A DNA stretch of 38,436 nt, from the NCBI GenBank assembly GCA_020630735.1, contig JAHDIP010000030.1:1-38436 (forward strand). The letters run 5' to 3'. This stretch comes from Saprospiraceae bacterium. GTDB taxonomy: Bacteria; Bacteroidota; Bacteroidia; Chitinophagales; Saprospiraceae. Made by a program: the position numbers and the translations under genes. The notes beneath the pieces were generated by a model. That model was not told the origin of the DNA, did not search any database, and saw only the letters and a list, made by a program, of their open reading frames with translations. Numbering within the stretch: position 1 is the first letter of the stretch; each line of letters opens with the position of its first letter. Below are positions 8,611 through 33,135 of this stretch, in pieces.

Positions 8611-8712
8611 TATACAGAAACCAAAATGGTTTTTCGGATTGCCAAACAAAGCTACTGAAAATTAAACAATAGCTATCTATGATGATCCGAAAACAGAATA
8701 CCAGTAGGTATA
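8611..8712 (-). repeat. Intergenic repeat, copy A (reverse)
   Basis: 102 bp. On the minus strand it starts TATACCTACTGGTATTC (5' hairpin ATACC-TACT-GGTAT) and ends AAACCATTTTGGTTTCTGTATA in two halves (3' hairpin AAACCA-TTT-TGGTTT). Between them TTTTCGGAT pairs perfectly with ATCCGAAAA. It lies in the 464-bp gap between the divergent sensor-kinase duplicate and the PDZ-protein gene. The rest of that gap holds only a hairpin with TTGGTTAA/TTAACCAA arms (8530-8537 and 8551-8558) and no gene. Confidence 0.85.
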
Positions 8713-8790
8713 AATTTATTTGATCGAGTAACATTGAAAACATGATCTATTTTTTCGCCGTTACTTTTAACCAGCTAAACCTTCCTTACC

Positions 8791-10170
8791 ATGAAAAAAG
8801 TAAACGTTACTACAGTTAGTCTCAAAATTCTAGCCGCTTTTCTATTTCTTTTAAGTACGAATGTAGCTTTCGCTCAAGCGAATGAAAGACTTAAAAAGAA
8901 AATTATAATTTCCACTAAAATTACAGACAATAATGGAAATGAACAAATAGAAAAAATTATCAAAAAAGGTGCTGATGCAGAGAGTATCAATTTAGACGAA
9001 TTAATCGCAAGAACTCAACAAGATGAATTTGTTGATGTTATAGTTGAAGAAGCTGATAATCTTACCGCTCGTAGAGGAGACCTTGTTGGAGATATTGAGA
9101 TCGAAGAATACGTCGCTCCAATGGCAAGACGCTATAATGTTGAACCTACTTTCGAAGAAAGTGATAAAGCCTTTTTAGGAGTTTTTTGTTCCATGCCTTC
9201 TGAGAAAGGGGTAAGTATTGTTAGTGTAATCAAAAATAGTGGCGCTAGCAAAGCAGGACTTTTAGGCAATGATGTGATTACGCATATCAACGAAGCTAAA
9301 GTACATTCTCATGCAGAATTGGTTGCAGTATTGCAAAACTACAAAGCAGGCGATGAAGTAACTGTACGTTTCTTGCGAAATACATCTGCTCAACAAGTGC
9401 AAGCAACATTGACTTCTCCAATCATTAATAATCGTCATTCTAATTATGGATTTAGTCGTTGTACAACTCCAAGTAGAACGATAGAAGTACCTCAGAAGCC
9501 TCAACTTGGTGTTTATATTGATGATAATGCTCGTGGAGTATTGGTGACTGAATTAATAGAAAACTCAGCAGCTCAAAAGGCTGGTTTAGTAGAAAACGAT
9601 ATCATTTACAAAGTCGACAATAATGATGTTACAACAGCAAATCAGTTAATAGATTTGATGAAAGAATATAGCGTTGGTGACGAAATAAAAGTTCGTTTAT
9701 ATAGAGCCGACAAAAAAGAAAAATTTAATGTAGTACTTGGTGCTGCTCCTGTTAAAGATTGGAAAATCGGCGGTTGCGGATTACAGTCTCAACCAAAAGA
9801 GCAATACCAATTGAGAAGGCGAGTAATCCTTATAGATAAAGAACCTGAATTAGATATTAATGCTCTTACTGAATCGTTAGTAGAAGAAAATATTAATACT
9901 GAATTAGAGTTTAAGCGATTTGAGTTATTTCCAAATCCAACGAATGGTTTATTAACAGTGAAGTTTTCAACATCAAATGAAATGCCATTAAGAGTAGCGA
10001 TTTTGGATGTAGCTGGTAAAGAAATTTTTAGCGAAGATGTTGTGCAATCTACAATGGTTTACGAACGACAAATTGATTTGACAAGTAATACACCAGGTAT
10101 TTATATTTTAAAAATCACACAAGACAAAAAAGTATTTACTGAAAAAATAATTTATTCTAATCAAGACTAA
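8791..10170 (+). CDS. Exported two-PDZ protein with T9SS sorting domain
   Basis: 459 aa. A signal peptide ends at about Ala28 (NVAFA-QA). PDZ domain 1 spans about 128-205 (FLGVFC...GASKAGLLGNDVITHIN) and PDZ 2 about 238-317 (QLGVYI...AAQKAGLVENDIIYKVD). From 378 to the end there is a type A T9SS sorting domain: FELFPNPTNG, VAILDVAGKEIF, PGIYILKITQDKKVFTEKII. The protein should cross the inner membrane by Sec and be delivered to the surface or medium by T9SS. The PDZ arrangement recalls HtrA-type proteases, but there is no protease domain, so a peptide-binding or scaffolding role is inferred. It is transcribed divergently from the two-component system. Followed by a terminator. Confidence 0.88.
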   Translation: MKKVNVTTVSLKILAAFLFLLSTNVAFAQANERLKKKIIISTKITDNNGNEQIEKIIKKGADAESINLDELIARTQQDEFVDVIVEEADNLTARRGDLVGDIEIEEYVAPMARRYNVEPTFEESDKAFLGVFCSMPSEKGVSIVSVIKNSGASKAGLLGNDVITHINEAKVHSHAELVAVLQNYKAGDEVTVRFLRNTSAQQVQATLTSPIINNRHSNYGFSRCTTPSRTIEVPQKPQLGVYIDDNARGVLVTELIENSAAQKAGLVENDIIYKVDNNDVTTANQLIDLMKEYSVGDEIKVRLYRADKKEKFNVVLGAAPVKDWKIGGCGLQSQPKEQYQLRRRVILIDKEPELDINALTESLVEENINTELEFKRFELFPNPTNGLLTVKFSTSNEMPLRVAILDVAGKEIFSEDVVQSTMVYERQIDLTSNTPGIYILKITQDKKVFTEKIIYSNQD

Positions 10171-10199
10171 TATTGAATTAAGACGCCATAATAAATAGA

Positions 10200-10235
10200 A
10201 AAAGGCTTTTTTGTCAATTGATGAAAAAGCCTTTT
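10200..10235. terminator. Bidirectional terminator between convergent genes
   Basis: Arms 10200-10211 (AAAAGGCTTTTT) and 10224-10235 (AAAAAGCCTTTT) form a 12-bp stem with a 12-nt loop, with A/T runs on both sides. It sits between the PDZ-protein gene (plus) and the convergent hypothetical gene (minus, stop at 10242), and can serve both. Confidence 0.8.
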
Positions 10236-10241
10236 CTTATA

Positions 10242-11072
10242 TTATTTTTTGCCTTTCAAAGATGGGATATTATTGAAGTTAATGCGTGGTGTTTTGTTTT
10301 TTACTTCCGAATAAATACCAAGTCGTAAGGTAATCATAAAATTGAGTAATTCGTCTTGTTGTTCTCTAAGGTACTTATCCTGTTCGTCAATTTTGGTCAT
10401 GGCTGCTTGAAGCTTTTTTCGTTCTTCTTCAGCAATATCTATTTTGACTTGTTCCCTACCCAAATCAAGTATTTTCTTTTCTATTTTTACAAAGGGATAA
10501 AGCTCTTTGTTTTTTAGAGCGATTTGCTCTGCTAGTGATTTGCCAGGGTTCATATCTTGACTCTTTCTAGCAAAAATAACATCGACAATATCTGCTAATT
10601 GTGCATTAAGACCAAGGTCTTCGTACAATTCATTATTGCGGAGAATACTGGTGATAATAATTTTTTCTAACCAGTTTTTTCTATCCTTATCAATACCTTC
10701 AGCGAGTTGAAGTACAAAAAATGTTTCATCACTTTTAGTAGCACTAAGTACTGTTTGCTTTACAGAATAAAACGTAATAAGAATGTTTCCTTTGATGACC
10801 TCATTTATGATAGCGTAATAGATCACCTGTTCAAAATATTCTTGCCAAGCATCAAAGATGGACCACTTTTGAGGAACAAAATCATAGCTAGGTAAGTTGC
10901 CTAGTGAAGCGACACTGATGGGATAGGAGAGATCGAAATCTTCAGCACCAACAAGTACCAATTGTTGAAGTCTACTTTTGGTCGTTTTACCTACTTCTCT
11001 ACCAAAAACAACAAAAGGACTCACCGTTTCTTCCGAAGGAATATCAATAATTTTTACGCTTATATCTTTCAT
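10242..11072 (-). CDS. Hypothetical protein with C-terminal coiled coil
   Basis: 276 aa, not recognised. No signal peptide or membrane segment, so probably cytoplasmic. An N-terminal alpha/beta-looking region (1-130, with IIDIPSEE and VVFGREVGKTT) is followed by a charged helical region. A likely coiled coil lies at about 205-250, rich in Glu, Lys and Gln, with EEERKKLQAAMTKIDEQ. The tail is basic (SLKGKK). Start is the ATG at 11072. It faces the PDZ gene tail to tail, and repeat copy B lies 81 bp upstream. The frame is long, has no competing frame and uses codons like its neighbours, so it is likely real. No function can be assigned from the sequence. Confidence 0.7.
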   Translation of the reverse strand: MKDISVKIIDIPSEETVSPFVVFGREVGKTTKSRLQQLVLVGAEDFDLSYPISVASLGNLPSYDFVPQKWSIFDAWQEYFEQVIYYAIINEVIKGNILITFYSVKQTVLSATKSDETFFVLQLAEGIDKDRKNWLEKIIITSILRNNELYEDLGLNAQLADIVDVIFARKSQDMNPGKSLAEQIALKNKELYPFVKIEKKILDLGREQVKIDIAEEERKKLQAAMTKIDEQDKYLREQQDELLNFMITLRLGIYSEVKNKTPRINFNNIPSLKGKK

Positions 11073-11153
11073 TGAATAAATATTACTTTCCTAGGTATTA
11101 ATAGTCAGTCAAAATAAAAATGAAAAGCTCAAGCGTATCCTTTGTGCATTTTA

Positions 11154-11258
11154 TATACCTACTAGTATTCAGTTTAAGGATCATCATTCGTAGCTATCCA
11201 TTAATTCTCAGTAGCTTTAATTGATTGATAATCCCAAAACTACTTTGGTTTCAGTATA
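11154..11258 (+). repeat. Intergenic repeat, copy B (forward)
   Basis: 105 bp, TATACCTACTAGTATTCAG at the 5' end and CTTTGGTTTCAGTATA at the 3' end. Aligned by eye without gaps it matches copy D at 87 of 105 positions. It begins 82 bp upstream of the hypothetical gene's start and ends 24 bp past the stop codon of the acyl-CoA ligase gene, where I see no separate terminator; its 3' hairpin could serve as one (inference). Confidence 0.9.
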
Positions 11259-11282
11259 ATGCATTCAAATTAAAGCATATGC

Positions 11283-12956
11283 TCATTTTTTCTTAGCTTC
11301 ATCTCGTAGCTTTCGGCGTAAGATTTTACCTACATTAGTTTTCGGCAGTTCATCTCTAAATTCTACTTCTTTGGGAACTTTATATCCTGTCAGATGTTCT
11401 CTCGAAAACTGAATGAGTTCATCTGCTTTCAGAGACTTATCTTTTTTCACCACAAAGATTTTGACCACTTCACCAGATTTCTCGTGTGGGATACCTACTG
11501 CCGCTACTTCCAGCACTTTTTCGTGCATAGCGATCACATCTTCGATCTCATTTGGATACACATTAAATCCAGATACCAAAATCATATCCTTCTTTCGATC
11601 TACAATTTGGAAAAAACCATCTTCAGACATTTTACCGATATCACCAGTACATAGCCAACCATCTACAATGGTTTCACTTGTAGCATCAGGACGATTATAG
11701 TAGCCTTTCATTACCTGAGGTCCTTTTATCTGAATCTCGCCTACTTCACCCGGAGCAACAGGATTTCTTGCTTCATCAACAATACGCATATCGGTCGAAG
11801 GAATAGGAATACCGATTGTACCTAAGCGACCAGTTCCATCTATTGGATTAACAGAAGCCACGGGCGAAGATTCTGTCATGCCAAAACCTTCTGCTAAGTA
11901 ACAGCCTGTTACTTTTTGCCAACGCTCGGCTACAGCTCGTTGTACAGCCATACCTCCACCTACAGTAGCTTTCAAGGTGCTAAAGTCTAATTTTTCGAAA
12001 TCTTTATGATTAAGTAAAGCATTAAATAAAGTATTAACACCAGTCATTAAGGTAATCTTATTCTTTTTAAAGGCATCAATCACAGTTGGTAAATCACGAG
12101 GGTTTACGATTAAAACAGTAGTTGTACCTATACTCATAAAGGCCAAACAATTAACCGAAAAAGCAAAAATATGATACATCGGTAGTGGCGATAATGCTAC
12201 TTCCTCTGCTTCTTTAAGATTAGGCATCAAGATAGAGCGTACCTGTTCCATATTGGCTACGAGGTTGCGATTCGTCAACATAGCACCCTTAGCAACGCCA
12301 GTTGTACCTCCTGTGTATTGAAGCAAAATAGTATCATCAGCCGCACCTTGATGAAGGGTAAGTGAAAACTTTTTACCCTGACTTAACGCTTCTTTAAAAG
12401 ACACCGTATTAGGAATCGAATATTTAGGAACGAGTCTTTTGACATGGCGTACTACTAAATTTACCATTCTCCCTTTTACGGTACCTAGCAATTCACCAAG
12501 ACTGGTAACAATAGTTGTTTTGATGGGAACATCTCCCAAAATTTGTTCAAGATTAGCTGCATAGTTTTCAGAAATAACAACAGCTTTTACACCAGCATCT
12601 GTAAATTGATGTTTCATCTCTCTTGGTGTGTACAATGGATTGGTATTGACAATGATCAATCCTGCTCGCAAGGCACCAAATAAAGCAATAGGATATTGCA
12701 AAAGATTAGGCATCATCAATGCAATTTTGTCGCCAGCCTCTAAACCTCTTGATTGCAAATAAGCTCCAAATTGTGTAGAATATTTATCTAATTCTGCAAA
12801 GGTTATTCCCTTACCCATGCAGATGAACGCTGTTTTATGTTTGTATTTTTTAAACGTTTCCTCTATCATATCTACCAAAGAGGTATAGGCATCAGCATTA
12901 ATATTTGCAGGAATGCCATTCGAATATAGTTTTAGCCAAGGTCGTTGTTCCGCCAT
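11283..12956 (-). CDS. fadD: Long-chain fatty-acid-CoA ligase
   Basis: About 557 aa from the ATG at 12956. ANL-superfamily adenylating enzyme: P-loop-like YTGGTTGVAKGA, GFGMTESSP, then TGDIGKMSEDGFFQIVDRKKD and ILVSGFNVYPNEIE, the signature of fatty acyl-CoA synthetases, and a C-terminal PKTNVGKILRRKLR with the catalytic Lys. It activates long-chain fatty acids with ATP and CoA for beta-oxidation or lipid synthesis. The frame stays open to 13007, but I prefer the ATG at 12956: MAEQRPWLKLYSNGIPANIN matches the usual FadD N-terminus (PWLK.Y..G.PA.I), and the extra 17 codons run into repeat copy C. The gene is bracketed by repeat copies B and C in opposite orientation. Confidence 0.92.
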   Translation of the reverse strand: MAEQRPWLKLYSNGIPANINADAYTSLVDMIEETFKKYKHKTAFICMGKGITFAELDKYSTQFGAYLQSRGLEAGDKIALMMPNLLQYPIALFGALRAGLIIVNTNPLYTPREMKHQFTDAGVKAVVISENYAANLEQILGDVPIKTTIVTSLGELLGTVKGRMVNLVVRHVKRLVPKYSIPNTVSFKEALSQGKKFSLTLHQGAADDTILLQYTGGTTGVAKGAMLTNRNLVANMEQVRSILMPNLKEAEEVALSPLPMYHIFAFSVNCLAFMSIGTTTVLIVNPRDLPTVIDAFKKNKITLMTGVNTLFNALLNHKDFEKLDFSTLKATVGGGMAVQRAVAERWQKVTGCYLAEGFGMTESSPVASVNPIDGTGRLGTIGIPIPSTDMRIVDEARNPVAPGEVGEIQIKGPQVMKGYYNRPDATSETIVDGWLCTGDIGKMSEDGFFQIVDRKKDMILVSGFNVYPNEIEDVIAMHEKVLEVAAVGIPHEKSGEVVKIFVVKKDKSLKADELIQFSREHLTGYKVPKEVEFRDELPKTNVGKILRRKLRDEAKKK

Positions 12957-12984
12957 TATTTTATCTAATTGATATTGAAAAATG

Positions 12985-13091
12985 TATACTGAAAACTTAA
13001 ACGGCAATCTGAATTGCCAATAGTTATAAGGTCTTGAAGATTAAACGATTATCAATAATAATGAACATTTAACCGAATACCGGTAGGTATA
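12985..13091 (-). repeat. Intergenic repeat, copy C (reverse, divergent)
   Basis: 107 bp. On the minus strand it starts TATACCTACCGGTATTC (hairpin ATACC-TACC-GGTAT) and ends TTTTCAGTATA. The middle differs from the other copies and carries its own hairpin GGCAAT-TCAG-ATTGCC. It lies 28 bp upstream of the chosen fadD start and also in the leader side of rpsA. Confidence 0.75.
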
Positions 13092-13277
13092 TTTCTTTGG
13101 ATTTTACGGATTTCTAGGTATAAATGTTTGAATTTTGGTCGATCTAATCGGTTTACAATTAATCTAAAACCCCTTTGAGGGCTTAATATATTAATATTTT
13201 GTGAGATTTTTAATGATAAAAAGGTGTAAAGTGCTAATTTTCAATGAATTTAGCTTTTTTTATAGGTAAAAAAAGTG

Positions 13278-13285
13278 TACTTTTG
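13278..13285 (+). promoter_or_regulatory. Bacteroidota -7 element for rpsA
   Basis: TACTTTTG fits the Bacteroidota -7 consensus TAnnTTTG and lies 65 bp upstream of the rpsA start codon. I do not see a clear TTG -33 element at the right spacing. The rest of the gap between fadD and rpsA (12957-13349) holds repeat copy C and a small CCCTTTGAGGG hairpin (13171-13181), no gene. Confidence 0.55.
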
Positions 13286-13349
13286 CACCGCTAAATTTAG
13301 ACTGGTAAAAAAGTCTATTATTTCTTAACCTTTAAAATGGGATTCTTTA

Positions 13350-15728
13350 ATGTTGAACGACGAGAATCTAGAAAAAGAAGAGTCAAATCAGGAAACTCCT
13401 GAGCACACTAGTGCCACAGCGGTTGACTCTGCCAAAAAGGAAGATGTTCAAGTTGCCGCTCAAGTTACGGCTCATGATGATTTTGATTGGGACTTAGGTA
13501 ACGACAAACATGCACTTCCTTACACAGAAGATCAAGTAGCTAAATACTTGAAAGAATACGAAGGAACGTTAACTTCTGTAATCGAAAACGAAATTGTCAC
13601 TAGTACAGTATCTGCTATCTCGGCTAGAGATGTAATACTTGACATTAATTACAAATCTGATGGCTTAATTCCAATTTCGGAATTCAGAGACACGCCTGAC
13701 CTTAAGGTTGGTGACAAGATCGATGTCTATGTAGAAAAGCAGGAAGATGAAAGAGGTCAATTGGTATTATCTCGACGTAAAGCGAAGCTTTTACGTGCTT
13801 GGGAAAGTATCGTAGACTCTTACGAAAATGGAACTGTAATAAAAGGTACCGTTATCAGCAAAACGAAAGGTGGTCTTATTGTAGATGCCAATGGTTTGGA
13901 AACGTTCTTACCTGGTTCACAAATTGATATCAAACCTATCATCGATTATGATGCATATGTTGGTAAGACAATGGAGTTTAAAGTAGTGAAAATCAATGAG
14001 CAAATTAAGAATGCTGTTGTTTCTCACAAAGCACTTATAGAAAGTGATCTTGCTGAACAACGTGAAGCTATTATTGCTAGCCTTGAAAAAGGACAAGTAC
14101 TTGAAGGTTTAGTGAAAAACATTACAGACTTCGGTGCATTCCTTGATCTTGGTGGTGTAGATGGACTATTGTATATCACAGATATTTCTTGGGGACGTAT
14201 TTCTCACCCAAGTGAAATATTAGCATTAAATCAGAAAATCAATGTTGTTGTTCTTGATTTTGATGAGAACAAGAAACGTATTTCTTTAGGTCTTAAACAA
14301 TTACAACCACATCCGTGGGAAGTATTGGATGCAGAGATTAAAGAAGGTTCTGACGTAAAAGGTAAAGTTGTCAATATCGAAGACTACGGTGCATTCCTAG
14401 AAATTATGCCTGGTGTTGAAGGTCTTGTTCACGTTTCAGAGGTTACTTGGAGTAACCAACCTGTAAATGCACGTGAATTCTTCAAACTTGGTCAAGAGTA
14501 TGATGCAAAAGTTGTTACTATAGATCGTGATGATCGTAAGATGTCTTTAAGTATCAAACAACTTTCTAAAGACCCTTGGAGTGAAATAGAAACGATCTTC
14601 CCTCTAAATAGTCGCCATACAGGTGATGTTAAAAACTTAACACCTTATGGTGTATTTGTTGAATTGAAAGAAGGAATTGGTGGCATGGTTCACATTTCTG
14701 ACCTTTCTTGGACAAAGCGTTTTTCTCACCCATCTGAGTTTACTAAAGTAGGTAACGACATCGAAGTTGTTATTCTAGATATAGATAAGAATAGCCGTAA
14801 GCTTTCATTAGGACACAAGCAGATTGAAGAGAATCCTTGGGATACATTCGAAAACGTATTCCCTATTGGCTCTTATCACCAAGCTACAATTGTTCGTCGT
14901 GATGATAGAGGTGCTATTGTTCAGTTACCATATGGTCTTGAAGCATTTGCTCCAATCAAACACATCCGAAAAGAAGATGGTCAATTGGCAAATGTTGAAG
15001 AAGAGTTAACTGTAAAAGTAATCGAATTTAATAGAGATGATAAGCGTATCTTAGTTTCTCACTTACGTTACTTAGACGACATCAGAAAAGAAGCTGATGA
15101 AGCTATACGTAAAGAGAAAGGCGAAGCACGCGAAACAACTCGTAAGCAAGTTAAAAAGACACAGTCTAAAGTTGAAAGAGCAACTCTTGGTGATTTAGGC
15201 GTCTTTTCTGGTTTAAATTTGGCTGATGACAAAACGGCTAAAGCAGAAGCTCCTAAAGTAGAAACACCGAAGGAAGAGCCTAAAGCTGAAGCACAGAAGG
15301 AAGAAACAGCTCCAGAGGTTGTTGCTGAAGCAAAAGTTGAAGCAAAAGCTTCTGAAGAAGCTCCTGCTCCTCCTGTTGTAGAAGAAGAGATTGAGGAAAT
15401 CGAAGAGATTGAGGAGTTAGATTTGGACTTAGATGATACACCTGCAGCTGCTGTAGCTACAGAGGCACCTTCTGCTAGTGATGATCTTAAGAAAATCGAA
15501 GGGGTTGGACCAAAGATAGAGCAATTGCTTAAAGATGCTGGTATTCATACTTGGGCTAAACTTGCTGAAACAGCTCCTGAAGCTATTAAAGAAGTGTTGG
15601 TTGCTGCTGGTAGTCGTTACCAAATGCATGATCCTACTACTTGGCCTGAGCAAGCTGAAATGGCTGCTAAAGGCGACTGGGATGCACTAAAGAAATGGCA
15701 AGATGAGCTAGATGGTGGTCGTGCTTAA
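13350..15728 (+). CDS. rpsA: Ribosomal protein S1 with C-terminal helix-hairpin-helix extension
   Basis: 792 aa, longer than the usual 550-600 aa. Acidic N-terminus (1-65), then six S1 RNA-binding domains at about 70-145, 160-230, 247-317, 330-402, 415-490 and 500-578; clear ones are KGQVLEGLVKNITDFGAFL, GKVVNIEDYGAFLEI and HTGDVKNLTPYGVFVEL. A basic helix (about 590-620) is followed by an Ala/Pro/Glu-rich linker with a very acidic EEIEEIEEIEELDLDLDD run, and from about 711 a globular module with helix-hairpin-helix LKKIEGVGPKIEQLLKDAGI, then HTWAKLAE and WPEQAEMAAKGDWDALKKW. S1 brings mRNA to the 30S subunit, which matters in Bacteroidota because Shine-Dalgarno sequences are weak. The HhH module suggests additional nucleic-acid or protein binding (inference). 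Has its own promoter and terminator. Confidence 0.95.
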   Translation: MLNDENLEKEESNQETPEHTSATAVDSAKKEDVQVAAQVTAHDDFDWDLGNDKHALPYTEDQVAKYLKEYEGTLTSVIENEIVTSTVSAISARDVILDINYKSDGLIPISEFRDTPDLKVGDKIDVYVEKQEDERGQLVLSRRKAKLLRAWESIVDSYENGTVIKGTVISKTKGGLIVDANGLETFLPGSQIDIKPIIDYDAYVGKTMEFKVVKINEQIKNAVVSHKALIESDLAEQREAIIASLEKGQVLEGLVKNITDFGAFLDLGGVDGLLYITDISWGRISHPSEILALNQKINVVVLDFDENKKRISLGLKQLQPHPWEVLDAEIKEGSDVKGKVVNIEDYGAFLEIMPGVEGLVHVSEVTWSNQPVNAREFFKLGQEYDAKVVTIDRDDRKMSLSIKQLSKDPWSEIETIFPLNSRHTGDVKNLTPYGVFVELKEGIGGMVHISDLSWTKRFSHPSEFTKVGNDIEVVILDIDKNSRKLSLGHKQIEENPWDTFENVFPIGSYHQATIVRRDDRGAIVQLPYGLEAFAPIKHIRKEDGQLANVEEELTVKVIEFNRDDKRILVSHLRYLDDIRKEADEAIRKEKGEARETTRKQVKKTQSKVERATLGDLGVFSGLNLADDKTAKAEAPKVETPKEEPKAEAQKEETAPEVVAEAKVEAKASEEAPAPPVVEEEIEEIEEIEELDLDLDDTPAAAVATEAPSASDDLKKIEGVGPKIEQLLKDAGIHTWAKLAETAPEAIKEVLVAAGSRYQMHDPTTWPEQAEMAAKGDWDALKKWQDELDGGRA

Positions 15729-16551: not shown

Positions 16552-16572
16552 TAATTCTTAAAAAAACAAACG

Positions 16573-24310: not shown

Positions 24311-24700
24311 TTAACTTACAAGTTTTGTATAGGCTTCAGCGTCCATAAGATCATTTAATTCTTCAAGGTTTGTTAGTTCAATTTTGACGATCCATCCTTT
24401 ATCGTAGGGATCTTCATTGATAATAGCAGGGTTATCTCCTTCTGCTTCATTTAGTTCAGGATTAAACTCTAGTATTTTTCCAGAAACAGGCATAAATAAT
24501 TCAGAAGTTGTCTTTACAGCCTCTACTGTTCCGAAAACAGCTTCTTTTTCAAGCGTTTCACCTACCGTTTCTACTTCAATATAGACTAATTCGCCAAGTT
24601 CACTTTGTGCAAAGTCCGTAATACCTATATAAGCAGTATTTCCGTCTATTTTTAGCCATTCATGCTCTTTTGTATATTTTAAACCTGCAGGAAATTCCAT
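24311..24700 (-). CDS. gcvH: Glycine cleavage system H protein
   Basis: 129 aa. Opens with [27 protein letters not shown] and carries the lipoylation site Lys63 in [18 protein letters not shown]. The C-terminus [13 protein letters not shown] is also typical. The lipoyl arm shuttles the aminomethyl group between the P, T and L proteins of glycine cleavage; those partners are elsewhere. Normal length. Start is the ATG at 24700. Confidence 0.96.
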
Positions 24701-24921: not shown

Positions 24922-25026
24922 TATACCTACTGGTATTCAGTTTAAGGATTATTATTAATAGCGATTGTTTGATTCTCAGTAACTTCAATCGTTTGGTAAT
25001 ACTAAAACCACTTTGGTTTCAGTATA
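24922..25026 (+). repeat. Intergenic repeat, copy D (forward)
   Basis: 105 bp, TATACCTACTGGTATTCAG at the 5' end, CTTTGGTTTCAGTATA at the 3' end. Contains the 5' hairpin ATACC-TACT-GGTAT and the 3' hairpin AAACCA-CTT-TGGTTT. Repeat positions 19-33 pair with 73-87 at 13 of 15 places. It lies 9 bp from the citrate synthase terminator. The rest of the 389-bp gap to gcvH contains no gene. Confidence 0.9.
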
Positions 25027-25089: not shown

Positions 25090-26415
25090 CTAATTATTTG
25101 CACTTACTTCTTGTTTTTCTAAGTATTCCATTACCCATTTAGTAGTAACAGATTTAGGTCGCTCTAGTGGGAAACCTAAGGCTCTAGACCAACAAAGGGC
25201 AGATAAAACACCTAAGGCTCTAGATACACCAAATAGTACTGTATAGTAACTAAACTCTTTCATACCATAGTGTACTAAGATAGCGCCAGAGTGCGCATCT
25301 ACATTAGGCCAAGGATTTTTTACTTTACCTAGTCCTTGTAATATTGGAGGAATAACTTCAAAGCATTTCCAAACTACATCAATAATTTCAGATCCATGTA
25401 TATATTCTTGAGCAAAACGTTTTTGTTCGATAAAACGAGGATCAGGTTGACGTAATACTGCGTGACCATATCCAGGAATGACTTTACCTGCAGCTAAAGT
25501 ACTATTTACATAGTCTTTAATTTGATCTTTGGTAGGACGTCTTGTACCCAAGGTATCAAGCATTCTGAAGATCCACTTGATTACTTCCTGATTTGCTAGT
25601 CCGTGTAATGGACCTGCTAATGCATTCATACCACCTGCTAAAGAGAAATAGGAATCACTTAAGGTCGAACCAACAAGATGTGTAGCGTGAGCAGAAGCAT
25701 TTCCACCTTCGTGGTCAGCATGAATAGTAAGGTACAATCTCATCAGACTTTTGAAATCTTCGCCTTCCACACCAAGCATGTGAGCAAAGTTAGCACTCCA
25801 ATCTAAGGAGATATCTGGAGCAATATGTTTACCACCATGATAGGTACGTCTATATATGTAAGCTGCTACACGAGGAAGACGAGCTATAAGGTTCATAGTG
25901 TCTTCATAAGTAGCGTCCCAATATTCGCTTTTATTCATTCCCTCAGCATAGCGCCTTGCAAAAACACTTCCTGTTTGCATCGACACAATAGCTGTACTAA
26001 GTTGTGTCATAGGGTGTGTATCTACAGGAAGCGAGTCGAGTACTTTGAATGTATGCTCAGGTACGATACTACGACGTGTCCATTGATCAGTAACCCATTT
26101 TACTTGTTCAGGAGTTGGAATTTCGCCAATAAGCATCAACCAAAAAAGACCTTCAGGTAAAGGTTCTTTACCACCAGGCACTTTAGGCAATAAATCTCTT
26201 AGCTCAGGAATAGAGTAACCCCTAAATCGAATACCATCATTAGGGTCAAGTTGGGAAGTTTCCCAAACCATACTTTTTACACCACGCATACCACCAAAAA
26301 CTTGACGAAGAACAACTTCATCTACTTTGGTATCTCCACGTTCTTTTAGTAAACTTTTTATTTGGGCTTTAAGTGCTTGAGATTTTTCAGCAAATTTCTG
26401 TTTAAGAGGATCCAT
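25090..26415 (-). CDS. Citrate synthase, mitochondrial/eukaryotic-like type
   Basis: 441 aa. Catalytic residues His271 (GPLHGLANQ), His318 (PGYGHAVLR) and Asp373 (NVDAHSG) are present. The sequence follows mitochondrial citrate synthases rather than the bacterial GltA type: the N-terminal VFGGMRGVKSMVWETSQLDP region, HADHEGGNASAHATHLVG, KNPWPNVDAHSG and YYTVLFGVSRALGVLS, followed by WSRALGFPLERPKS, are all characteristic of that type. It condenses acetyl-CoA with oxaloacetate to start the TCA cycle. The enzyme is expected to be a dimer without the NADH-binding region of Gram-negative GltA (family inference). Single-gene unit with its own terminator. Confidence 0.95.
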   Translation of the reverse strand: MDPLKQKFAEKSQALKAQIKSLLKERGDTKVDEVVLRQVFGGMRGVKSMVWETSQLDPNDGIRFRGYSIPELRDLLPKVPGGKEPLPEGLFWLMLIGEIPTPEQVKWVTDQWTRRSIVPEHTFKVLDSLPVDTHPMTQLSTAIVSMQTGSVFARRYAEGMNKSEYWDATYEDTMNLIARLPRVAAYIYRRTYHGGKHIAPDISLDWSANFAHMLGVEGEDFKSLMRLYLTIHADHEGGNASAHATHLVGSTLSDSYFSLAGGMNALAGPLHGLANQEVIKWIFRMLDTLGTRRPTKDQIKDYVNSTLAAGKVIPGYGHAVLRQPDPRFIEQKRFAQEYIHGSEIIDVVWKCFEVIPPILQGLGKVKNPWPNVDAHSGAILVHYGMKEFSYYTVLFGVSRALGVLSALCWSRALGFPLERPKSVTTKWVMEYLEKQEVSANN

Positions 26416-26586
26416 TTATGCTTCTAATTATAAAGATTTGGAATTGAATATTAATTTGTTTTCAGGCTTGAGTAAGGTTGTGCAAAGTTAATAAAATTGG
26501 TTGGAATTTTTCAATGTATATTGAAGTAACAACGGTAAGAATATTAAAAGTGTTGCATATAACGTTCAGTAGATATAATAAAAATT

Positions 26587-26627
26587 AAAAACGGTTAAAG
26601 TCTTTTCTCGAGACTTTAACCGTTTTT
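26587..26627 (-). terminator. Terminator of the small secreted protein gene
   Basis: Arms 26587-26603 and 26611-26627 form a perfect 17-bp stem (AAAAACGGTTAAAGTCT) with a 7-nt loop and A/T runs at both ends, 12 bp past the stop codon at 26640. Confidence 0.88.
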
Positions 26628-26639
26628 ATTATCAAAAAA

Positions 26640-27002: not shown

Positions 27003-27169
27003 TGAGATATTATTTTTGATAAAAATTTTTAAGTTATGTTGTTGTTGATAGAAAGCTAAGTTACAATTTTATAACATATATTGTTTCTTTAAATAGTCTT
27101 TTTTGCCAAAAACCACATAAAATGACAGCTATTTACCTTTTTTATGAACAATTTTAAAACCCAAACTAA

Positions 27170-27757
27170 ATGCTAATCATACAGGATAAATTGATAAGTG
27201 ATGATGTTGTAGAAGAACAGTTTCTTTGCAATCTTTCTGCTTGTAAAGGCGCTTGTTGTTGGGAAGGCGATTCTGGTGCTCCTTTAGAAAAGGCTGAATT
27301 GGATATGCTTGATCAAATTTATGAAGATGTAAAACCCTTCTTAAGCGAAGAAAGTCGTAGGGTTTTGGAAGAAAAAGGGAAGTATACTTATTACAAAAAG
27401 CCTGGAGAATATGGAACTCCGCTTCTCGATAATGCAGCTTGTGCCTATATGACTTACTCTGATGATGGTATAGCACAATGTGGCATCGAGCAAGCTTATA
27501 AGGCTGGTCATACTGATTTTAAGAAACCGATATCTTGCCATTTGTATCCTATAAGAGTAACAGAAAATAAGGCAAATGGTTTTGAAGCTATAAATTATGA
27601 TCGCTGGGACATTTGTTCGGCAGCTTGTACCTTGGGTAAAGAAGAACAGCTTCCTGTTTATCAATTTTTAAAAGAAGCTCTAATCCGAAAATATGGAGCG
27701 GCTTTTTATGAAGAATTAGATCATGCTGCCCAATACATGAAAGATAAGGATGAATGA
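27170..27757 (+). CDS. DUF3109 family cysteine-rich protein
   Basis: 195 aa. Conserved cysteine clusters: CNLSACKGACCWEGDSGAPL (20-39), CAYM and QCGIEQAYKAG in the middle, and CHLYPIR and DICSAAC toward the end. This arrangement is that of DUF3109, a Bacteroidota relative of the YkgJ Fe/Zn-chelating proteins; metal binding is inferred from the cysteines. No signal peptide, so cytoplasmic. Start is the ATG at 27170. Downstream a hairpin (27830-27858, AAAGG/CCTTT plus CTTTG/CAAAG arms) lacks a strong T-run. Confidence 0.88.
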   Translation: MLIIQDKLISDDVVEEQFLCNLSACKGACCWEGDSGAPLEKAELDMLDQIYEDVKPFLSEESRRVLEEKGKYTYYKKPGEYGTPLLDNAACAYMTYSDDGIAQCGIEQAYKAGHTDFKKPISCHLYPIRVTENKANGFEAINYDRWDICSAACTLGKEEQLPVYQFLKEALIRKYGAAFYEELDHAAQYMKDKDE

Positions 27758-27888
27758 AGCTAGTTGCCCAAGCATTTTTTGTATAATAACATCCTTTAAC
27801 GTATAATTCTACTCTTTTTCAGTGAAAAGAAAGGTCTTTGAACTGTTACAAAGCCTTTAAAAACTTTGATTTTAACGGTTAAACCTGT

Positions 27889-27896
27889 TACCTTTG
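27889..27896 (+). promoter_or_regulatory. -7 element of the PpiD-like gene
   Basis: TACCTTTG matches TAnnTTTG. It lies 141 bp upstream of the start codon, leaving a long AT-rich leader that contains a TTTTCTCA/TGAGAAAA hairpin (27903-27910 with 27925-27932). No clear TTG -33 element at standard spacing. Confidence 0.5.
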
Positions 27897-28036
27897 CAAA
27901 GCTTTTCTCAAAATAAAAAAAAAATGAGAAAAAAAATCCTTTTTGATTTTCTTTTGTTAAAACGTAACAAAAAGGCAGTCAATTAGTTATATAATAAATT
28001 ATCATTAATTAACAAAAATTAAAATACCATAATAAA

Positions 28037-30160
28037 ATGGCTCTGATAGGACAAATACGGAAAAATAGTTGGATAATGATCGTTTTGGTGGGCTTAGGAT
28101 TGTTTGGATTCATCGTAATGGATATGTTTTCTGGTCAGCAAAGTGTATTTGGGTCTGGTCAAAACACGATGGGAAGCATCAATGGACGTAAATTAGACTA
28201 TAACGAATTTAGCAGAGCAGAGCAGGCTTTGTATAGTAATTCAGGAGGTGACGTTTTTGGTCGTCGTAATGCTTTATGGAACTATTTCGTCGAAGAATCT
28301 ATCGTAAAGGATGAGGCAAAAGCTTTGGGTTTAGGTGTAAGCAGAGATGAATTGCTTGACTTAGAATTTGGTGCTGATAACAAAGTTAGTCCAATTATTA
28401 GACAACGCTTTGCAGATCCTAATAACCCTAGGGTTATAGATCGGAATAGTTTGAATCAAATTAAACAAGCTATTGAAACTGATCAGATCAATCCTCAGTA
28501 TCGTTCTTTTTGGGCACACCAAGAAAAAGAAATCATTAAGGATAGATTGCAGTCTAAATTGAATGGTCTTGTACAACAAGGTATGTATACGCCTACTTGG
28601 ATGGCTGAATTGGCTAGTAATGACCAAAACCAAAAAGTAGAGTTTGCTTATGTAAAGGTGCCTTTTGATGAGATTGATGATGGTAATGTTGAATTAACAG
28701 ATGCTGACTATCAAAATTACTTGACAGAAAATGCAGGTCTGTATAAGCAAGATGAAGAAACTAGAAAAGTTGGTTATGTTTCTTTTGATGTATTGCCTAC
28801 GCAATCGGATTCTGCGAATTTAAGAAAAACGATTTCAGATTTAATTCCTAAATTTAAAAGCTCAACTGACGAAGCTGTTTTTGCAGAAAACAATTATGGC
28901 TCATACGATGCTGCTTATGTAAAAAAAGACGGCTTGAGTCCTGCTATTGCTGATGAATTATTCAATGCTGAAGTTGGTACTGTTGTAGGTCCTTATTTGG
29001 ATGGTAATGCGTATAATGCAGTAAAGCTAATAGATAGAATGACAGTTGCAGATTCTGTACGATCTAGACATATCCTAATCAGATCGGCTGGTGATCCTAT
29101 TAGTTTAGCACAAGCTCAAAAGACAATAGATAGTCTCAAAACTTTAATCGATGCAGGTACACATCGTTTTGATTCTCTAGCGGTTAAATTTAGCCAAGAT
29201 GCTTCCAATGCTTCTAAAGGTGGTGATTTGGGAAGTGCGACTCCAGGGATGATGGTGAAGCCATTCAATGACTTAATTTTTTATGATGCTGAGCCAGGAA
29301 AAGTTTACTCTGTTACAACTCGTTTTGGTGTTCACTTGGTTGAGGTCTTAAAGCGTAAGTATATTAAAAACGAGGAAGGTGTAAAAGTAGCCTATGTTCG
29401 TCAATCTATTATTCCTAGCGAAGACACAAGAAAGAATAAGTATAATGAAGTAATGGAGATTTTAGGAAATAATCGTGGAATAGAAGCTTTAACTAAAGTA
29501 GTAAACGATAGTCCTGATTTGGAAATGGAAGAAGGACCATTAGTGAAAGCTAATGACTTTAATTTTGGTGAATTAGGAAGTGGCCAGCCATCACGTGACA
29601 TTATAAAGTGGGCATTTACAGCTGATAAAGGAGATGTCTCTCCAACTATTTATACTTATCAAGATCCTGTAGAATTGTACGAAAACAAATACGTGATAGC
29701 TACACTACAAGCTATCCAACCTGCAGGTATGCCAACGGTTGCTAATCTTAAATCTGAGATAGAAGCTTTAGTTAGAAATCAAAAGAAAGGAGAATTTTTA
29801 GCGGGTAAAATTGGTGGTCAACAATTAGATGGTATTGCAAATTCATATAGTTCTGAAGTTGACACAGCTCGTAATGTAAACTTTTCATCTTCTTACTTAC
29901 AAGGATTAGGTAATGAGCCGAAGGTAATTGCTTCAGCATTTAACCTTCCTCTTAATAGTGTGTCTAAACCTATTACAGGAAATAATGGTGTATATGTATT
30001 GAAAGTATACAACAAACCAGCAGCAGCAACAACAGCGGCAAATATTCCAGCAATTCGCCGTTCTACTTCTGCTACAGCAAAAGGATATGTAGCTTCTCAG
30101 CTCATTCAATCTATGAAGAAGAATGTTGACATTACAGATAATCGTTCAAAGTTCTATTAA
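28037..30160 (+). CDS. Membrane-anchored peptidyl-prolyl isomerase, PpiD/SurA type
   Basis: 707 aa. Short cytoplasmic N-terminus (MALIGQIRKNSW), one membrane anchor (about 13-33), then a SurA_N-like chaperone region (about 45-200, GSINGRKLDYNEF...). A parvulin domain follows at about 343-440 with RSRHILIR, FSQDASNASKGGDLG, and a C-terminal region including another degenerate isomerase-like segment. It should be anchored in the inner membrane with the bulk in the periplasm and help exported proteins fold. Length and order match the roughly 700-aa PpiD-like proteins of Bacteroidota. It has its own promoter element and a strong terminator. Confidence 0.9.
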   Translation: MALIGQIRKNSWIMIVLVGLGLFGFIVMDMFSGQQSVFGSGQNTMGSINGRKLDYNEFSRAEQALYSNSGGDVFGRRNALWNYFVEESIVKDEAKALGLGVSRDELLDLEFGADNKVSPIIRQRFADPNNPRVIDRNSLNQIKQAIETDQINPQYRSFWAHQEKEIIKDRLQSKLNGLVQQGMYTPTWMAELASNDQNQKVEFAYVKVPFDEIDDGNVELTDADYQNYLTENAGLYKQDEETRKVGYVSFDVLPTQSDSANLRKTISDLIPKFKSSTDEAVFAENNYGSYDAAYVKKDGLSPAIADELFNAEVGTVVGPYLDGNAYNAVKLIDRMTVADSVRSRHILIRSAGDPISLAQAQKTIDSLKTLIDAGTHRFDSLAVKFSQDASNASKGGDLGSATPGMMVKPFNDLIFYDAEPGKVYSVTTRFGVHLVEVLKRKYIKNEEGVKVAYVRQSIIPSEDTRKNKYNEVMEILGNNRGIEALTKVVNDSPDLEMEEGPLVKANDFNFGELGSGQPSRDIIKWAFTADKGDVSPTIYTYQDPVELYENKYVIATLQAIQPAGMPTVANLKSEIEALVRNQKKGEFLAGKIGGQQLDGIANSYSSEVDTARNVNFSSSYLQGLGNEPKVIASAFNLPLNSVSKPITGNNGVYVLKVYNKPAAATTAANIPAIRRSTSATAKGYVASQLIQSMKKNVDITDNRSKFY

Positions 30161-30182
30161 AAATATACGCTTTTGTAAATAA

Positions 30183-30218
30183 AGAAAGGCTCACTTCATA
30201 AAAGAAGTGAGCCTTTCT
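30183..30218 (+). terminator. Terminator of the PpiD-like gene
   Basis: Arms 30183-30197 and 30204-30218 (AGAAAGGCTCACTTC and complement) form a perfect 15-bp stem with a 6-nt loop, 22 bp past the stop codon. The T-run after the stem is short, but the stem is GC-containing and strong. Confidence 0.8.
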
Positions 30219-30244
30219 CATTGGTTTCCTTTAAATAAAAAACG

Positions 30245-31093
30245 ATGCACAGGAAATTAGAACAAAATATAGAGAACCTTCTAGAAAATGGATATACGTT
30301 TTCGACAGGAGATTATATCAGCGAAGGATTTGATTTGTTTAAGCGGAATGCTGGACTTTTTATTGGTTTTATGATTTTGAGTTTTTTTCTTTCACTTATT
30401 GCAGGAGCAATTCCTAAAATCGGAGTTTTCCTAAATTCATTAGTCATTTCACCAATACTTGCAGTAGGGTATTTTATTGTGGCTGATAAAATCAAGAGAA
30501 ATCGGGACTATGATTTTGGTACCTTTTTCGAAGGCTTCCAACATGCACTGCCTCTAATTTTAGCAACAATTATAATGACGATCATTTTCATTATTGCCTT
30601 TTCCCCTAGTTTATATAGTTTATACAATTCAGGGATTTTTGATTTTTATACGGCCATTTTAGAGAATCCACTTGATATACCAGATTTTGATCCCATCTTT
30701 TCTTCCAATGCACTTACAGTATTAGTGCTCAATAGTCTGATCATTTGGTTTTTAATCGTTTGTTATACTTGGACTACACACTTTATCGTTTTTTACGGAT
30801 TAGATCCTTGGTCAGCGATGGAGGCCAGTCGTAAAATTATAATGAAAAGATGGTTTGCTGTATTTGGTTTGTATCTTGCCTTTTTCGGAATCTTTTTAAT
30901 AGGAATGTTAATAAGTTCATTAACCGCAGTTATGGCTCCTTTATTAGGTGTTTTTGTTTTAATTATAATGATGCTTGGAATACTTTTTGTCGGGCTTCCA
31001 ACAATATATTGTAGTATCTATGCTGCTTTTGCAGATGTGATTGGCTTTTTGGATGACGATGAAACGGATATATACGATCACTTTGTCAAATAA
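30245..31093 (+). CDS. Polytopic membrane protein of unknown function
   Basis: 282 aa with about six membrane segments (near 37-57, 62-80, 102-122, 158-180, 203-232, 236-262). The soluble N-terminus contains NGYTFSTGDYISEGFDLFKRNAGLFIGFM, a pattern seen in DUF4013/DUF975-like and glycerophosphodiester phosphodiesterase membrane-domain proteins. The tail is acidic (FLDDDETDIYDHFVK). No catalytic motif is visible. Starts 27 bp after the terminator of the previous gene, so it needs readthrough or its own promoter. Confidence 0.75.
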   Translation: MHRKLEQNIENLLENGYTFSTGDYISEGFDLFKRNAGLFIGFMILSFFLSLIAGAIPKIGVFLNSLVISPILAVGYFIVADKIKRNRDYDFGTFFEGFQHALPLILATIIMTIIFIIAFSPSLYSLYNSGIFDFYTAILENPLDIPDFDPIFSSNALTVLVLNSLIIWFLIVCYTWTTHFIVFYGLDPWSAMEASRKIIMKRWFAVFGLYLAFFGIFLIGMLISSLTAVMAPLLGVFVLIIMMLGILFVGLPTIYCSIYAAFADVIGFLDDDETDIYDHFVK

Positions 31094-31231
31094 CAACATA
31101 CATTCATGGGCAGGTTGTGCAATTCAATTATGAAAATGCTAAAGAATTAAAAAAATAATAATTTTAATCGAAAAAACACATTAATTCTAATAACAATAGT
31201 AGTTTGACTATGAAAACACATTAAAAATTAT

Positions 31232-31239
31232 TATTTTTG
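31232..31239 (+). promoter_or_regulatory. -7 element upstream of UDP-glucose dehydrogenase
   Basis: TATTTTTG matches TAnnTTTG and lies 150 bp before the start codon. A TTTG at 31203-31206 is 25 bp away, slightly too far for a canonical -33. The 296-bp gap 31094-31389 holds no gene that I can see. Confidence 0.45.
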
Positions 31240-31389
31240 TATCTCCGTTTAATTATTCTCTTGTCTCAAAAACCTACCCAACTCTAACTGACCAATTTGG
31301 CATGAGATTAGCTAATAAATATATTACATATTAGCTTAATGCTTATATATTATTTGTTTGCAGTTTTTATTCATTAAAATTATTATTAA

Positions 31390-32721
31390 ATGAAGTTAGC
31401 AATTGTAGGAACCGGTTATGTCGGCCTAGTATCAGGAACTTGTTTTGCTGAAACAGGTAATGACGTCGTATGCGTAGATATAGATGCAAAGAAAGTGGAG
31501 AGAATGCGTAATGGCGAAGTACCTATTTTTGAACCAGGCTTAGAGCTTTTATTTGAGCGGAATACAAAACAAGGTAGATTAACATTTACAACAGATTTAG
31601 CGAGTGCAATTAAAGATGCAGAAATTATTTTCTTAGCATTACCAACTCCTCCAGGAGAAGATGGATCAGCAGATTTATCTTATGTATTAGGTGTTGCAGA
31701 CCAACTCTCTTTATTTATTGATGATTATAAAGTAATCGTTGATAAAAGTACTGTACCTGTAGGTACTGCTGAAAGAGTACATGCAGCATTAGCAAAGAAT
31801 CTTAGCGAAGATCTTTTTGACGTAGTTTCAAATCCAGAATTTTTACGTGAAGGTGTAGCTGTAGACGATTTCTTGAAGCCTGATCGTGTAGTTATTGGTA
31901 CTAGTTCTGAAAGAGCTCGTAACACCATGAAAGCACTTTACGAACCTTTCGTACGTCAAGGTAATCCTATTATCTTTATGGATGAGCGTTCTGCTGAAAT
32001 GACAAAATATGCAGCTAACTCGTATTTAGCTACTCGTATTTCTTTTATGAATGAAATTGCTAACCTTTGTGAACGTGCAGGTGCCAATGTAGATATGGTA
32101 CGTAAAGGTATGGGAAGTGATAACCGTATCGGTAAGCGTTTCTTATTCCCAGGTGTTGGTTATGGTGGTAGCTGCTTCCCTAAAGATGTACAAGCTTTAG
32201 CAAAAACAGCTTCTCAACATGAATATGATTTCAAAATATTGAAGTCTGTAATGGAAGTTAATCGTTTACAGAAAAGTATCCTTTCTGAAAAAATTATTAA
32301 ATTCTTTAATGGTGATGTTAAAGGTAAAACGATCGCAATGTGGGGCCTTGCCTTCAAACCTAATACAGATGATATTCGTGAAGCACCAGCATTATACATT
32401 ATAGAAGATTTACTTAAAGCTGGCGCAAAGGTTCAAACATTCGATCCTGAAGGTATGGACAATGTGCGTGAAATCTATGGAGATAAAATCACTTATGCTT
32501 CTAACCAATATGAGGCATTAGAAAATGCTGATGTATTGGCTATCATTACAGAGTGGAGTGTGTTTAGAACACCTGACTTCTCTAAAATTGCTTCTTCATT
32601 AAGCCAAAAAGCAGTATTCGATGGTCGTAACCTTTACGATGTAGAGCAAATGAAAGACAAAGGTATTCACTACGAATCTATAGGTAGAATGCCTATCGTT
32701 TATAAAAATTCTTTAGCTTAG
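31390..32721 (+). CDS. ugd: UDP-glucose 6-dehydrogenase
   Basis: 443 aa. NAD-binding motif AIVGTGYVGLVSGTCFAETG at the N-terminus, substrate and cofactor segments LALPTPPGEDGSADLSYV, DKSTVPVGTAERV and SNPEFLREGVAVDDFLKPDRVV, catalytic Cys262 in GYGGSCFPKDVQAL, and the C-terminal UDP-binding domain (GLAFKPNTDDIREAPAL). It oxidises UDP-glucose to UDP-glucuronate for exopolysaccharide or capsule. UDP-N-acetylhexosamine dehydrogenases are related, but the length and motifs favour UDP-glucose. No polysaccharide cluster surrounds it. Confidence 0.92.
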   Translation: MKLAIVGTGYVGLVSGTCFAETGNDVVCVDIDAKKVERMRNGEVPIFEPGLELLFERNTKQGRLTFTTDLASAIKDAEIIFLALPTPPGEDGSADLSYVLGVADQLSLFIDDYKVIVDKSTVPVGTAERVHAALAKNLSEDLFDVVSNPEFLREGVAVDDFLKPDRVVIGTSSERARNTMKALYEPFVRQGNPIIFMDERSAEMTKYAANSYLATRISFMNEIANLCERAGANVDMVRKGMGSDNRIGKRFLFPGVGYGGSCFPKDVQALAKTASQHEYDFKILKSVMEVNRLQKSILSEKIIKFFNGDVKGKTIAMWGLAFKPNTDDIREAPALYIIEDLLKAGAKVQTFDPEGMDNVREIYGDKITYASNQYEALENADVLAIITEWSVFRTPDFSKIASSLSQKAVFDGRNLYDVEQMKDKGIHYESIGRMPIVYKNSLA

Positions 32722-32751
32722 TAACGGTCAAATAATAACTTCCCGATTTGT

Positions 32752-32849
32752 GGCTGGTATTTTAGAGTTAATATTTCGTCGAAAATACTCGTGATAGCTG
32801 GGCTATCACTGCGTTTTTCTCCTTATCTAAACTCAAAAATTCTATAGCC
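32752..32849 (+). other. Structured sequence downstream of ugd
   Basis: A foldable block between ugd and its likely terminator. An outer stem pairs 32752-32755 with 32846-32849 and, after an interior loop, 32759-32769 with 32830-32840 (10 of 11 positions). Inside is a strong 8-bp hairpin GTGATAGC-TGG-GCTATCAC (32791-32809). A 14-nt palindrome TTCTCTTAAGAGAA follows at 32916-32929. It could be a structured 3' UTR, a small RNA or an old repeat. No ORF. Confidence 0.4.
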
Positions 32850-32934
32850 AAAATGCGGAACTTATTTTTTACCCGTTACTTAAGAAGACAAATATCCTAT
32901 AGCTAAAAAATATACTTCTCTTAAGAGAATGCTT

Positions 32935-32977
32935 AGCAAGTTTGATGGTCAACTGATTATCAAACTTGCTTTTTTTT
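32935..32977 (+). terminator. Terminator about 215 bp after ugd
   Basis: Arms 32935-32946 (AGCAAGTTTGAT) and 32959-32970 form a perfect 12-bp stem with a 12-nt loop followed by seven or more Ts. It would end the ugd transcript, giving a long 3' UTR, or an independent small RNA. Confidence 0.85.
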
Positions 32978-33060
32978 GTCCAGTTTGAAACACCTATAAT
33001 TATTTTTTTACGAGTTGTTTGTTTTATTTAGTTGTTCTATACATCTTTACAGTAGTAAAC

Positions 33061-33135
33061 TATACCTACGGTTATTCGACTTTCTGATCAGCTTTAATTG
33101 ATTGGTAATCCGAAAATCATTTTGGTGTCTGTATA
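33061..33135 (+). repeat. Intergenic repeat, copy E (forward, internally deleted)
   Basis: 75 bp. Starts TATACCTAC and ends TTTTGGTGTCTGTATA; the right part, GCTTTAATTGATTGGTAATCC, follows copies B and A closely. About 30 bp of the centre is missing, but both ends are kept. Lies between the ugd terminator and the MORN-repeat lipoprotein gene. Confidence 0.8.

What the first reader, a model, noticed from the sequence alone, without database searches (positions are those of the whole stretch)
8611..33135. Dispersed ~105-bp structured intergenic repeat family, five copies in 25 kb
Copies at 8611-8712 (-), 11154-11258 (+), 12985-13091 (-), 24922-25026 (+) and 33061-33135 (+), all outside genes. 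All run from TATACCTAC to a GTATA end. Copies B and D match at 87 of 105 positions by hand. Each has a 5' hairpin such as ATACC-TACY-GGTAT (partly broken in B and E) and most have a 3' hairpin AAACCA..TGGTTT. An internal stem (repeat positions 20-33 with about 73-87) persists while its bases change: for example an A-T pair in copy D corresponds to a C-G pair in copy A, and U-G to C-G or U-A elsewhere. Copy E lost the centre but kept both ends. This fits either a MITE-like element (TA-flanked ends would suit an IS630/Tc1-type transposase) or a structured RNA/REP-like element.
Basis: seen in the sequence. Interest (0 to 1): 0.72.

Follow-up and report, generated by a model that had tools for sequence, protein, structure and literature searches.

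The report
Tiny jumping DNA repeat, high copy
The five repeats are copies of a roughly 105-base parasitic DNA element that inserts at the bases TA and is scattered, probably a few hundred times, between the genes of a little-known Saprospiraceae bacterium; it is a new family of a familiar kind of mobile element rather than a new structured RNA.

Summary
In detail: five related copies lie at the stated places between genes, and B and D match at 87 of 105. They belong to a family with roughly 260 detectable copies or fragments in this 6.6-Mb draft genome (Saprospiraceae, by one protein). Best explanation: a non-autonomous, MITE-like transposable element. Its inverted ends are imperfect and two-part (TATAC, then A8, A14, GTTT 19-22, GGAT 25-28). 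Insertion duplicates TA: joined flanks of 113 copies gave five readable paralogous empty sites, four with TA (one of these weaker) and one with TG. Flank base bias is symmetric, which suits a dimeric transposase on duplex DNA. A REP/RAYT or IS200-type element is contradicted by the TA duplication and by the lack of a Y1 transposase match. No IS630-type (DDE_3) transposase and no autonomous copy was found in the draft, so the mobilising enzyme is unknown. One genome of a second genus carries a diverged subfamily of about the same length. New family, known kind.

The parts
8611..8712 (-). Copy A, 102 bp; left end at 8712, right end at 8611; the outer TA at each end is read as the duplicated target
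11154..11258 (+). Copy B, 105 bp, full length
12985..13091 (-). Copy C, 107 bp, the most diverged; ends 28 bases before the first in-frame ATG (12956) of an AMP-binding enzyme gene
24922..25026 (+). Copy D, 105 bp, full length, between the genes for GcvH (24311-24700) and citrate synthase (25090-26415)
33061..33135 (+). Copy E, 75 bp, internal-deletion derivative that keeps both ends
32717..32890 (.). Member of a different, palindromic intergenic repeat family; at 32863-32864 it has the empty TA that in a paralogue (L010) holds a copy of the 105-bp element

Best explanation
The repeat is a non-autonomous DNA transposable element (a MITE) with a core of about 101 bp between duplicated TA dinucleotides. 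SHOWN: a few hundred dispersed copies; exact ends; imperfect two-part inverted ends in a fixed register; paralogous empty sites with a single TA (one with TG); two adjacent pairs of copies that share one TA; symmetric target bias; internal deletions that keep the ends. INFERRED: a DDE transposase acting in trans binds the inner inverted segments (about positions 19-33 from each end), cuts at the terminal TAC and joins the element into TA on duplex DNA, duplicating TA. A Tc1/mariner/IS630-type enzyme fits best by its TA rule (recalled). The enzyme is lost, or lies in the unassembled part of the genome, or is of a kind not searched for. Copies accumulate between genes because insertions into genes are selected against. 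The hairpins are palindromes within the end sequences, not a conserved RNA fold.
For: Empty sites: joined flanks of 113 copies against 489 kb of the genome gave five readable paralogous empty sites. L005/L099, L010/L122 (and five more members of that repeat, one in the window) and L009/L030 (and L015, same repeat) have TA where the copy sits; L114/L052 has TA when the two-base gap, which BLAST set five bases away, is placed at the junction by eye; L013/L042 has TG. Two adjacent pairs share one TA (L012, L108). Ends: in 69 copies of exactly 105 bp the two ends agree at positions 1-5 (97-100%), 8 (96%), 14 (97%), 19-22 (87-100%), 25-28 (91-100%), 32 (96%) and 33 (80%); identity over positions 6-33 is 0.49 in register against 0.13-0.35 at shifts of 1 to 6 either way (58 distinct copies). 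Flanks of 101 copies: C at -2 to -4 in 20 of 303 (background 14.0%), G at +2 to +4 in 16 of 303 (14.5%), T at -8,-9 in 99 of 202 (36.5%), A at +9,+10 in 104 of 202 (33.3%) (positions picked after viewing). Seven sets of identical near-full-length copies with different flanks, the largest of five. 129 of 130 copies overlap no ORF of 120 aa or more by 60 bp, whereas 74% of random placements do.
Against: No autonomous relative was found. PF13358 has no match in the genome. The single PF01609 hit is a gene cut by a contig end, with no such end recognised in the 2.1 kb held. A pattern for the ends that excludes the usual interior gave 5 places: three in copies of the element, one (L214) with only a weak model match (E 0.0015) beside it, and one (C36) in what reads by eye as a coding region. 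Many transposase families were not searched. The inverted ends differ at most positions from 6 to 18, and in the second genus positions 19, 25 and 28 agree in none of five copies. Per-copy flank palindromy is not above shuffles. A third close pair of copies (L118) does not share TA but lies one base apart. One of five empty sites has TG. Pairing of the hairpins is well kept and exceeds slid controls. No experiment shows movement.
Confidence: 0.92

Rival explanations
1. A structured RNA element (riboregulator, sRNA or attenuator family) dispersed by duplication.
For: Several single copies (A, L002, L003, L007 of eight folded) form three hairpins. Hairpin pairs are kept in 91-94% of cells, well above slid versions. 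The left hairpin is kept in the second genus (by eye). Copies lie between genes.
Against: RNAalifold gives 0 pairs on 89 copies. Covariation of left hairpin, right hairpin and inner stem is reached by 98, 342 and 488 of 500 shuffles; one left pair has two cells with a compensatory change. The right hairpin is lost in the second genus. TA empty sites and the register of the two ends are unexplained. No Rfam match at gathering threshold except a tRNA.
Confidence: 0.03
2. A REP/RAYT or IS200/IS605-derived (PATE) element mobilised as single-stranded DNA by a Y1 HUH transposase through its end hairpins.
For: A hairpin lies near each end in several copies.
Against: Y1_Tnp (PF01797) has no match in the genome; the control rings in 5 of 14 genomes. 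Such elements make no target duplication (recalled), whereas TA is duplicated here. Target bias is symmetric. The right hairpin is not conserved.
Confidence: 0.02
3. Dispersal by a reverse transcriptase: in the second genus one copy ends 17 bases before the presumed start of a retron-type RT gene, so the element could be an RT template RNA.
For: L218: the copy lies directly before an RT that matches PADLOC RT_XIII at 5.5e-187. The window's genome holds a partial homologue, 33% identical.
Against: In 54 stretches (the 30 RT loci plus 24 fetched) clear copies occur only in stretches of G332. The relatives that have enough upstream sequence show other upstream regions. One search lists this RT at one place only in G332, whereas G332 has eight full-length copies elsewhere. 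TA duplication and inverted ends point to a DDE enzyme.
Confidence: 0.02

Closest known systems
RUP of Streptococcus pneumoniae (PMC3049150, passages read)
   Same: About 107 bp, simple, AT-rich, 110 found in one genome, folds as a single strand with its inverted ends paired, presumed to move by an IS in trans
   Different: RUP ends resemble those of IS630-Spn1, common in that species; here no IS630-type transposase was found. No sequence comparison was made. That RUP duplicates TA is recalled.
Correia elements of Neisseria (PMC10969869, passages read)
   Same: High-copy bacterial MITE often near genes; its TA target is recalled, not from a call
   Different: First described at 204 bp; unrelated host; no sequence comparison was made here.
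MITEs of Bacteroidota: Porphyromonas gingivalis BrickBuilt and the Cardinium MITE (PMC4596501, PMC9769881; search listing and abstract starts only)
   Same: Same phylum (recalled), non-autonomous small elements
   Different: Not compared in sequence; no claim of kinship.

Membership tests
MITE (non-autonomous TIR element) | Short, without a transposase gene | tested here: met
   75-107 bp in the window; longest stop-free stretch 21-34 codons
MITE (non-autonomous TIR element) | Terminal inverted repeats | tested here: met
   Imperfect, two-part, in register
MITE (non-autonomous TIR element) | Target-site duplication shown by empty sites | tested here: met
   Five readable paralogous empty sites from 113 queries: TA in four (one weaker), TG in one; no strain-level empty site
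MITE (non-autonomous TIR element) | Many dispersed copies | tested here: met
   137 left ends, 205 right ends, 0 in controls; 25 copies or fragments in 640 kb
MITE (non-autonomous TIR element) | Autonomous relative with the same ends | tested here: inconclusive
   None found in a 434-contig draft with three transposase families and one end pattern
IS630/Tc1-mariner-mobilised element | TA target duplicated | tested here: met
IS630/Tc1-mariner-mobilised element | IS630-type transposase (DDE_3) present in the genome | tested here: not met
   PF13358: 0 matches; control rings in 3 of 14 genomes
REP/RAYT or IS200/IS605 element | Y1 HUH transposase in the genome | tested here: not met
   PF01797: 0 matches; control rings in 5 of 14 genomes
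REP/RAYT or IS200/IS605 element | No target duplication (recalled) | tested here: not met
Structured RNA family | Covarying stems | tested here: not met
Structured RNA family | Transcript | not testable with these tools
   no RNA-seq

The most novel reading that the evidence does not exclude
The element is moved by a TA-duplicating transposase outside the IS630 family, perhaps one not yet recognised, because identical, apparently recent copies coexist with no detectable DDE_3 or Y1 gene; its ends pair a short outer box with an inner box around a palindromic spacer.
Probability: 0.15. Interest if true: 0.5.

Novelty: new member of a known kind. Interest (0 to 1): 0.3.

Why it matters
It adds a well-delimited element family, with target rule and ends, in Saprospiraceae; two literature searches on that group listed no paper about such repeats (titles and abstract starts seen). 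It also shows how the inverted ends of a small element can be mistaken for an RNA stem, and that a draft genome with several nested small element families supplies its own empty sites.

Tried and rejected
Structured RNA: consensus fold and three stem counts, rejected.

Y1 and IS630-type transposases: no match. DDE_Tnp_1: one gene cut by a contig end. Autonomous copy by end pattern: none recognised. In 640 kb, isolated end-like matches with up to 2 mismatches were listed but not followed one by one; most look like chance, a few may be remnants.

Retron RT as driver: a striking adjacency in L218, not repeated in relatives; kept only as a rival.

IS30-like palindrome targeting, suggested by one second-genus copy that sits in the middle of a terminator-like palindrome (L288): flank palindromy over 101 copies is not above shuffles, rejected as a rule.

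Elsewhere: one exact right-end pattern in genome contigs 0 (own or near records may be left out), left-end and right-end patterns in viral contigs 0, plasmids and phages only hits at E 0.3-1. A pattern count with too narrow a gap gave 6 places and was replaced.

Rows dropped: spanning rows that were self-matches or matches to other copies of the element were left out, and L002, L006 and L046 were too diverged to read. In one search only copies of exactly 105 bp were used (69 of 144). In one search, 89 distinct copies of 98-108 bp. In one search, copies covering fewer than 81 model positions were left out. In one search two loci (L001, L018) were left out because they repeat the window and L050.

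Full report
OBSERVATION. The five copies align over their whole length. A sequence-only model finds the five at E of 1.2e-16 or better; the next window match is E 0.0037. These five are the model's own training rows. All lie between genes: A before a gene for a PDZ-domain protein with a secretion tail, B and C on either side of an AMP-binding enzyme gene, D between the genes for GcvH and citrate synthase, E before a MORN-repeat protein gene.

SCALE. In the window's own genome (6,635,307 bases, 434 contigs, 96% complete) the left-end pattern gives 137 places and the right-end pattern 205, with 0 in each reversed control (counts whole, listings capped). In 640 kb of other stretches (parts of six long contigs and 20 contigs picked by number) there are 25 matches, 9 of them full length, or about 39 per Mb. 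That scales to roughly 260 copies or fragments. The long contigs were known to me through earlier hits, which biases their figure upward (36 per Mb); the numbered sample gives 43 per Mb. The window, with 5 in 38 kb, is richer than average. Among the loci fetched around matches, plus the window (439 kb), there are 144 copies, 103 nearly full length. Seven sets of identical copies have different flanks, the largest with five members.

HOST. The citrate synthase is 84% identical to that of an uncultured Saprospiraceae bacterium, so the host is most likely in that family. This rests on one protein.

ENDS. The first 33 bases and the reverse complement of the last 33 share a fixed register: TATAC at 1-5, A at 8, A at 14, GTTT at 19-22, GGAT at 25-28 and positions 32-33 (69 copies). 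Identity over positions 6-33 is 0.49 in register and 0.13-0.35 at shifts of one to six either way (58 distinct copies).

TARGET. Copies have inserted into members of other repeat families of the same genome, so those families supply empty sites. Joined 100+100-bp flanks (shorter at contig ends) of 113 copies were compared with 489 kb of the genome. Five gave a readable empty site. L005 against L099, L010 against L122 and five further members of that repeat (one is window 32717-32890), and L009 against L030 and L015 show TA where the filled site has the copy. L114 against L052 (79% identical) shows TA if the two-base gap is moved five bases to the junction. L013 against L042 shows TG. The net gain is 103 bp: a 101-bp core plus a duplicated TA. 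Three further queries were too diverged to read. Two adjacent pairs of copies share a single TA (L012 1398-1502 with 1501-1605; L108 around 1457); a third close pair (L118) is one base apart. The flanks of 101 copies show a two-fold symmetric bias: C is rare at -2 to -4 (20 of 303) and G at +2 to +4 (16 of 303); T is enriched at -8,-9 (99 of 202) and A at +9,+10 (104 of 202) (the positions were chosen). This suits a symmetric enzyme complex on duplex DNA. Individual flank pairs are not more complementary than shuffled ones.

STRUCTURE. Single copies fold, four of eight into three hairpins, but RNAalifold on 89 distinct copies predicts no pair. The left hairpin keeps 93.4% of cells paired (shuffles 93.2%), the right hairpin 91.0% (91.1%) and ten inner pairs 94.3% (94.3%). 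These are far above versions slid by 1-3 columns, so the palindromes are real; but they do not covary: 98, 342 and 488 of 500 shuffles reach the observed score. Rfam reports only a tRNA in the window.

DRIVER. PF13358 (IS630-type DDE_3) and PF01797 (Y1) have no match in the draft genome; PF01609 has one, a gene cut by a contig end, without these ends in the stretch held. A pattern for the ends that excludes the usual interior gave five places and no autonomous element. Other transposase families were not searched. The TA rule makes a Tc1/mariner/IS630-type enzyme the likeliest driver (established knowledge, recalled), but it was not found.

DISTRIBUTION. Of 20 genomes in the first relatives search, own included, only the own one matched. 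An end pattern over 398 genomes of the family, own included, matched 2: the own genome (209 hits) and G332 of another genus (6 hits). Among 9 genomes of that genus a right-end pattern matched 3 (G332 with 10 places, G258 and G040 with one each). In G332 eight are full-length copies of about 105 bp (E 5e-10 or better), one is cut by a contig end (E 1.7e-8) and one is unclear; the hits in G258 and G040 are weak (E 0.5 and 0.05). In five G332 copies of 105 bp the two ends agree at positions 1-5, 8, 13, 14, 20-22 and 26 in all, at 24 and 27 in four, and at 19, 25 and 28 in none. The left hairpin is kept and the right one lost (by eye). One exact right-end pattern has no match in the named genome collection (84,980 genomes by the tool's description; own or very near records may be left out), nor do two end patterns in viral contigs.

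REVERSE TRANSCRIPTASE LEAD. One G332 copy ends 17 bases before the presumed start of a retron-type RT gene (RT_XIII). RT relatives were sought in 398 genomes (113 with a match at 1e-10). In 54 stretches, including 30 RT loci, clear copies of the element lie only in stretches of G332, so the adjacency is most simply one more insertion.

CONTEXT. 129 of 130 copies overlap no ORF of 120 aa or more by 60 bp, whereas 74% of random placements do; an insertion that broke an ORF could hide in this count. Neighbouring ORFs are tandem in 63, divergent in 23 and convergent in 14 cases, with 30 undetermined.

VERDICT. A new family of TA-targeting MITEs with an unknown mobiliser. The nearest analogue in size and habit is RUP of the pneumococcus (PMC3049150, passages read), whose presumed helper IS630-Spn1 is known; here none was seen. 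Searches for a description in print; none of the listed titles or abstract starts describes it.

Noticed in passing
window 32717-32890: Another palindromic intergenic repeat family (about 165-200 bp, ends like TTAGTAACGG..CCGTTACTTAA); matches also in L016, L030, L035, L050, L055, L099, L100, L117, L122 and others.
   Followed up: partly
L035 about 3008-3075; L015:261-395; L048 and L057 next to the copies: Further small element families inserted into or next to copies of the 105-bp element: an inverted repeat with AGAGTATGTTTTAAAATTTTG, a 135-bp insert identical in L015 and L030, and an AAGTGCTTGGACT element.
   Followed up: partly
L013:17-154 and L042:2849-3012: A repeat with GAAGTTGTTTAAAAAGTAT inverted ends; one member carries the 105-bp element.
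   Followed up: partly
L117:1462-1489 and L069:423-450: Remnants of about 29 bp that join both ends of the element at a shared GGTTT, probably internal deletions by microhomology.
   Followed up: no
L288 around 1425-1529: In the second genus one copy sits in the middle of a terminator-like palindrome (GCTGAT/ATCAGC), read by eye.
   Followed up: partly
L289 around 1425: A copy sits at the 3' end of a reading frame and would supply its stop codon (read by eye).
   Followed up: no
G332:C77 (L218, L261): Type XIII retron reverse transcriptase gene with the element directly upstream; 113 of 398 family genomes have an RT match at 1e-10, many of them distant.
   Followed up: partly
G000:C249:3-551 (L267): Partial retron-RT homologue (33%) running off a contig end in the window's own genome.
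   Followed up: no
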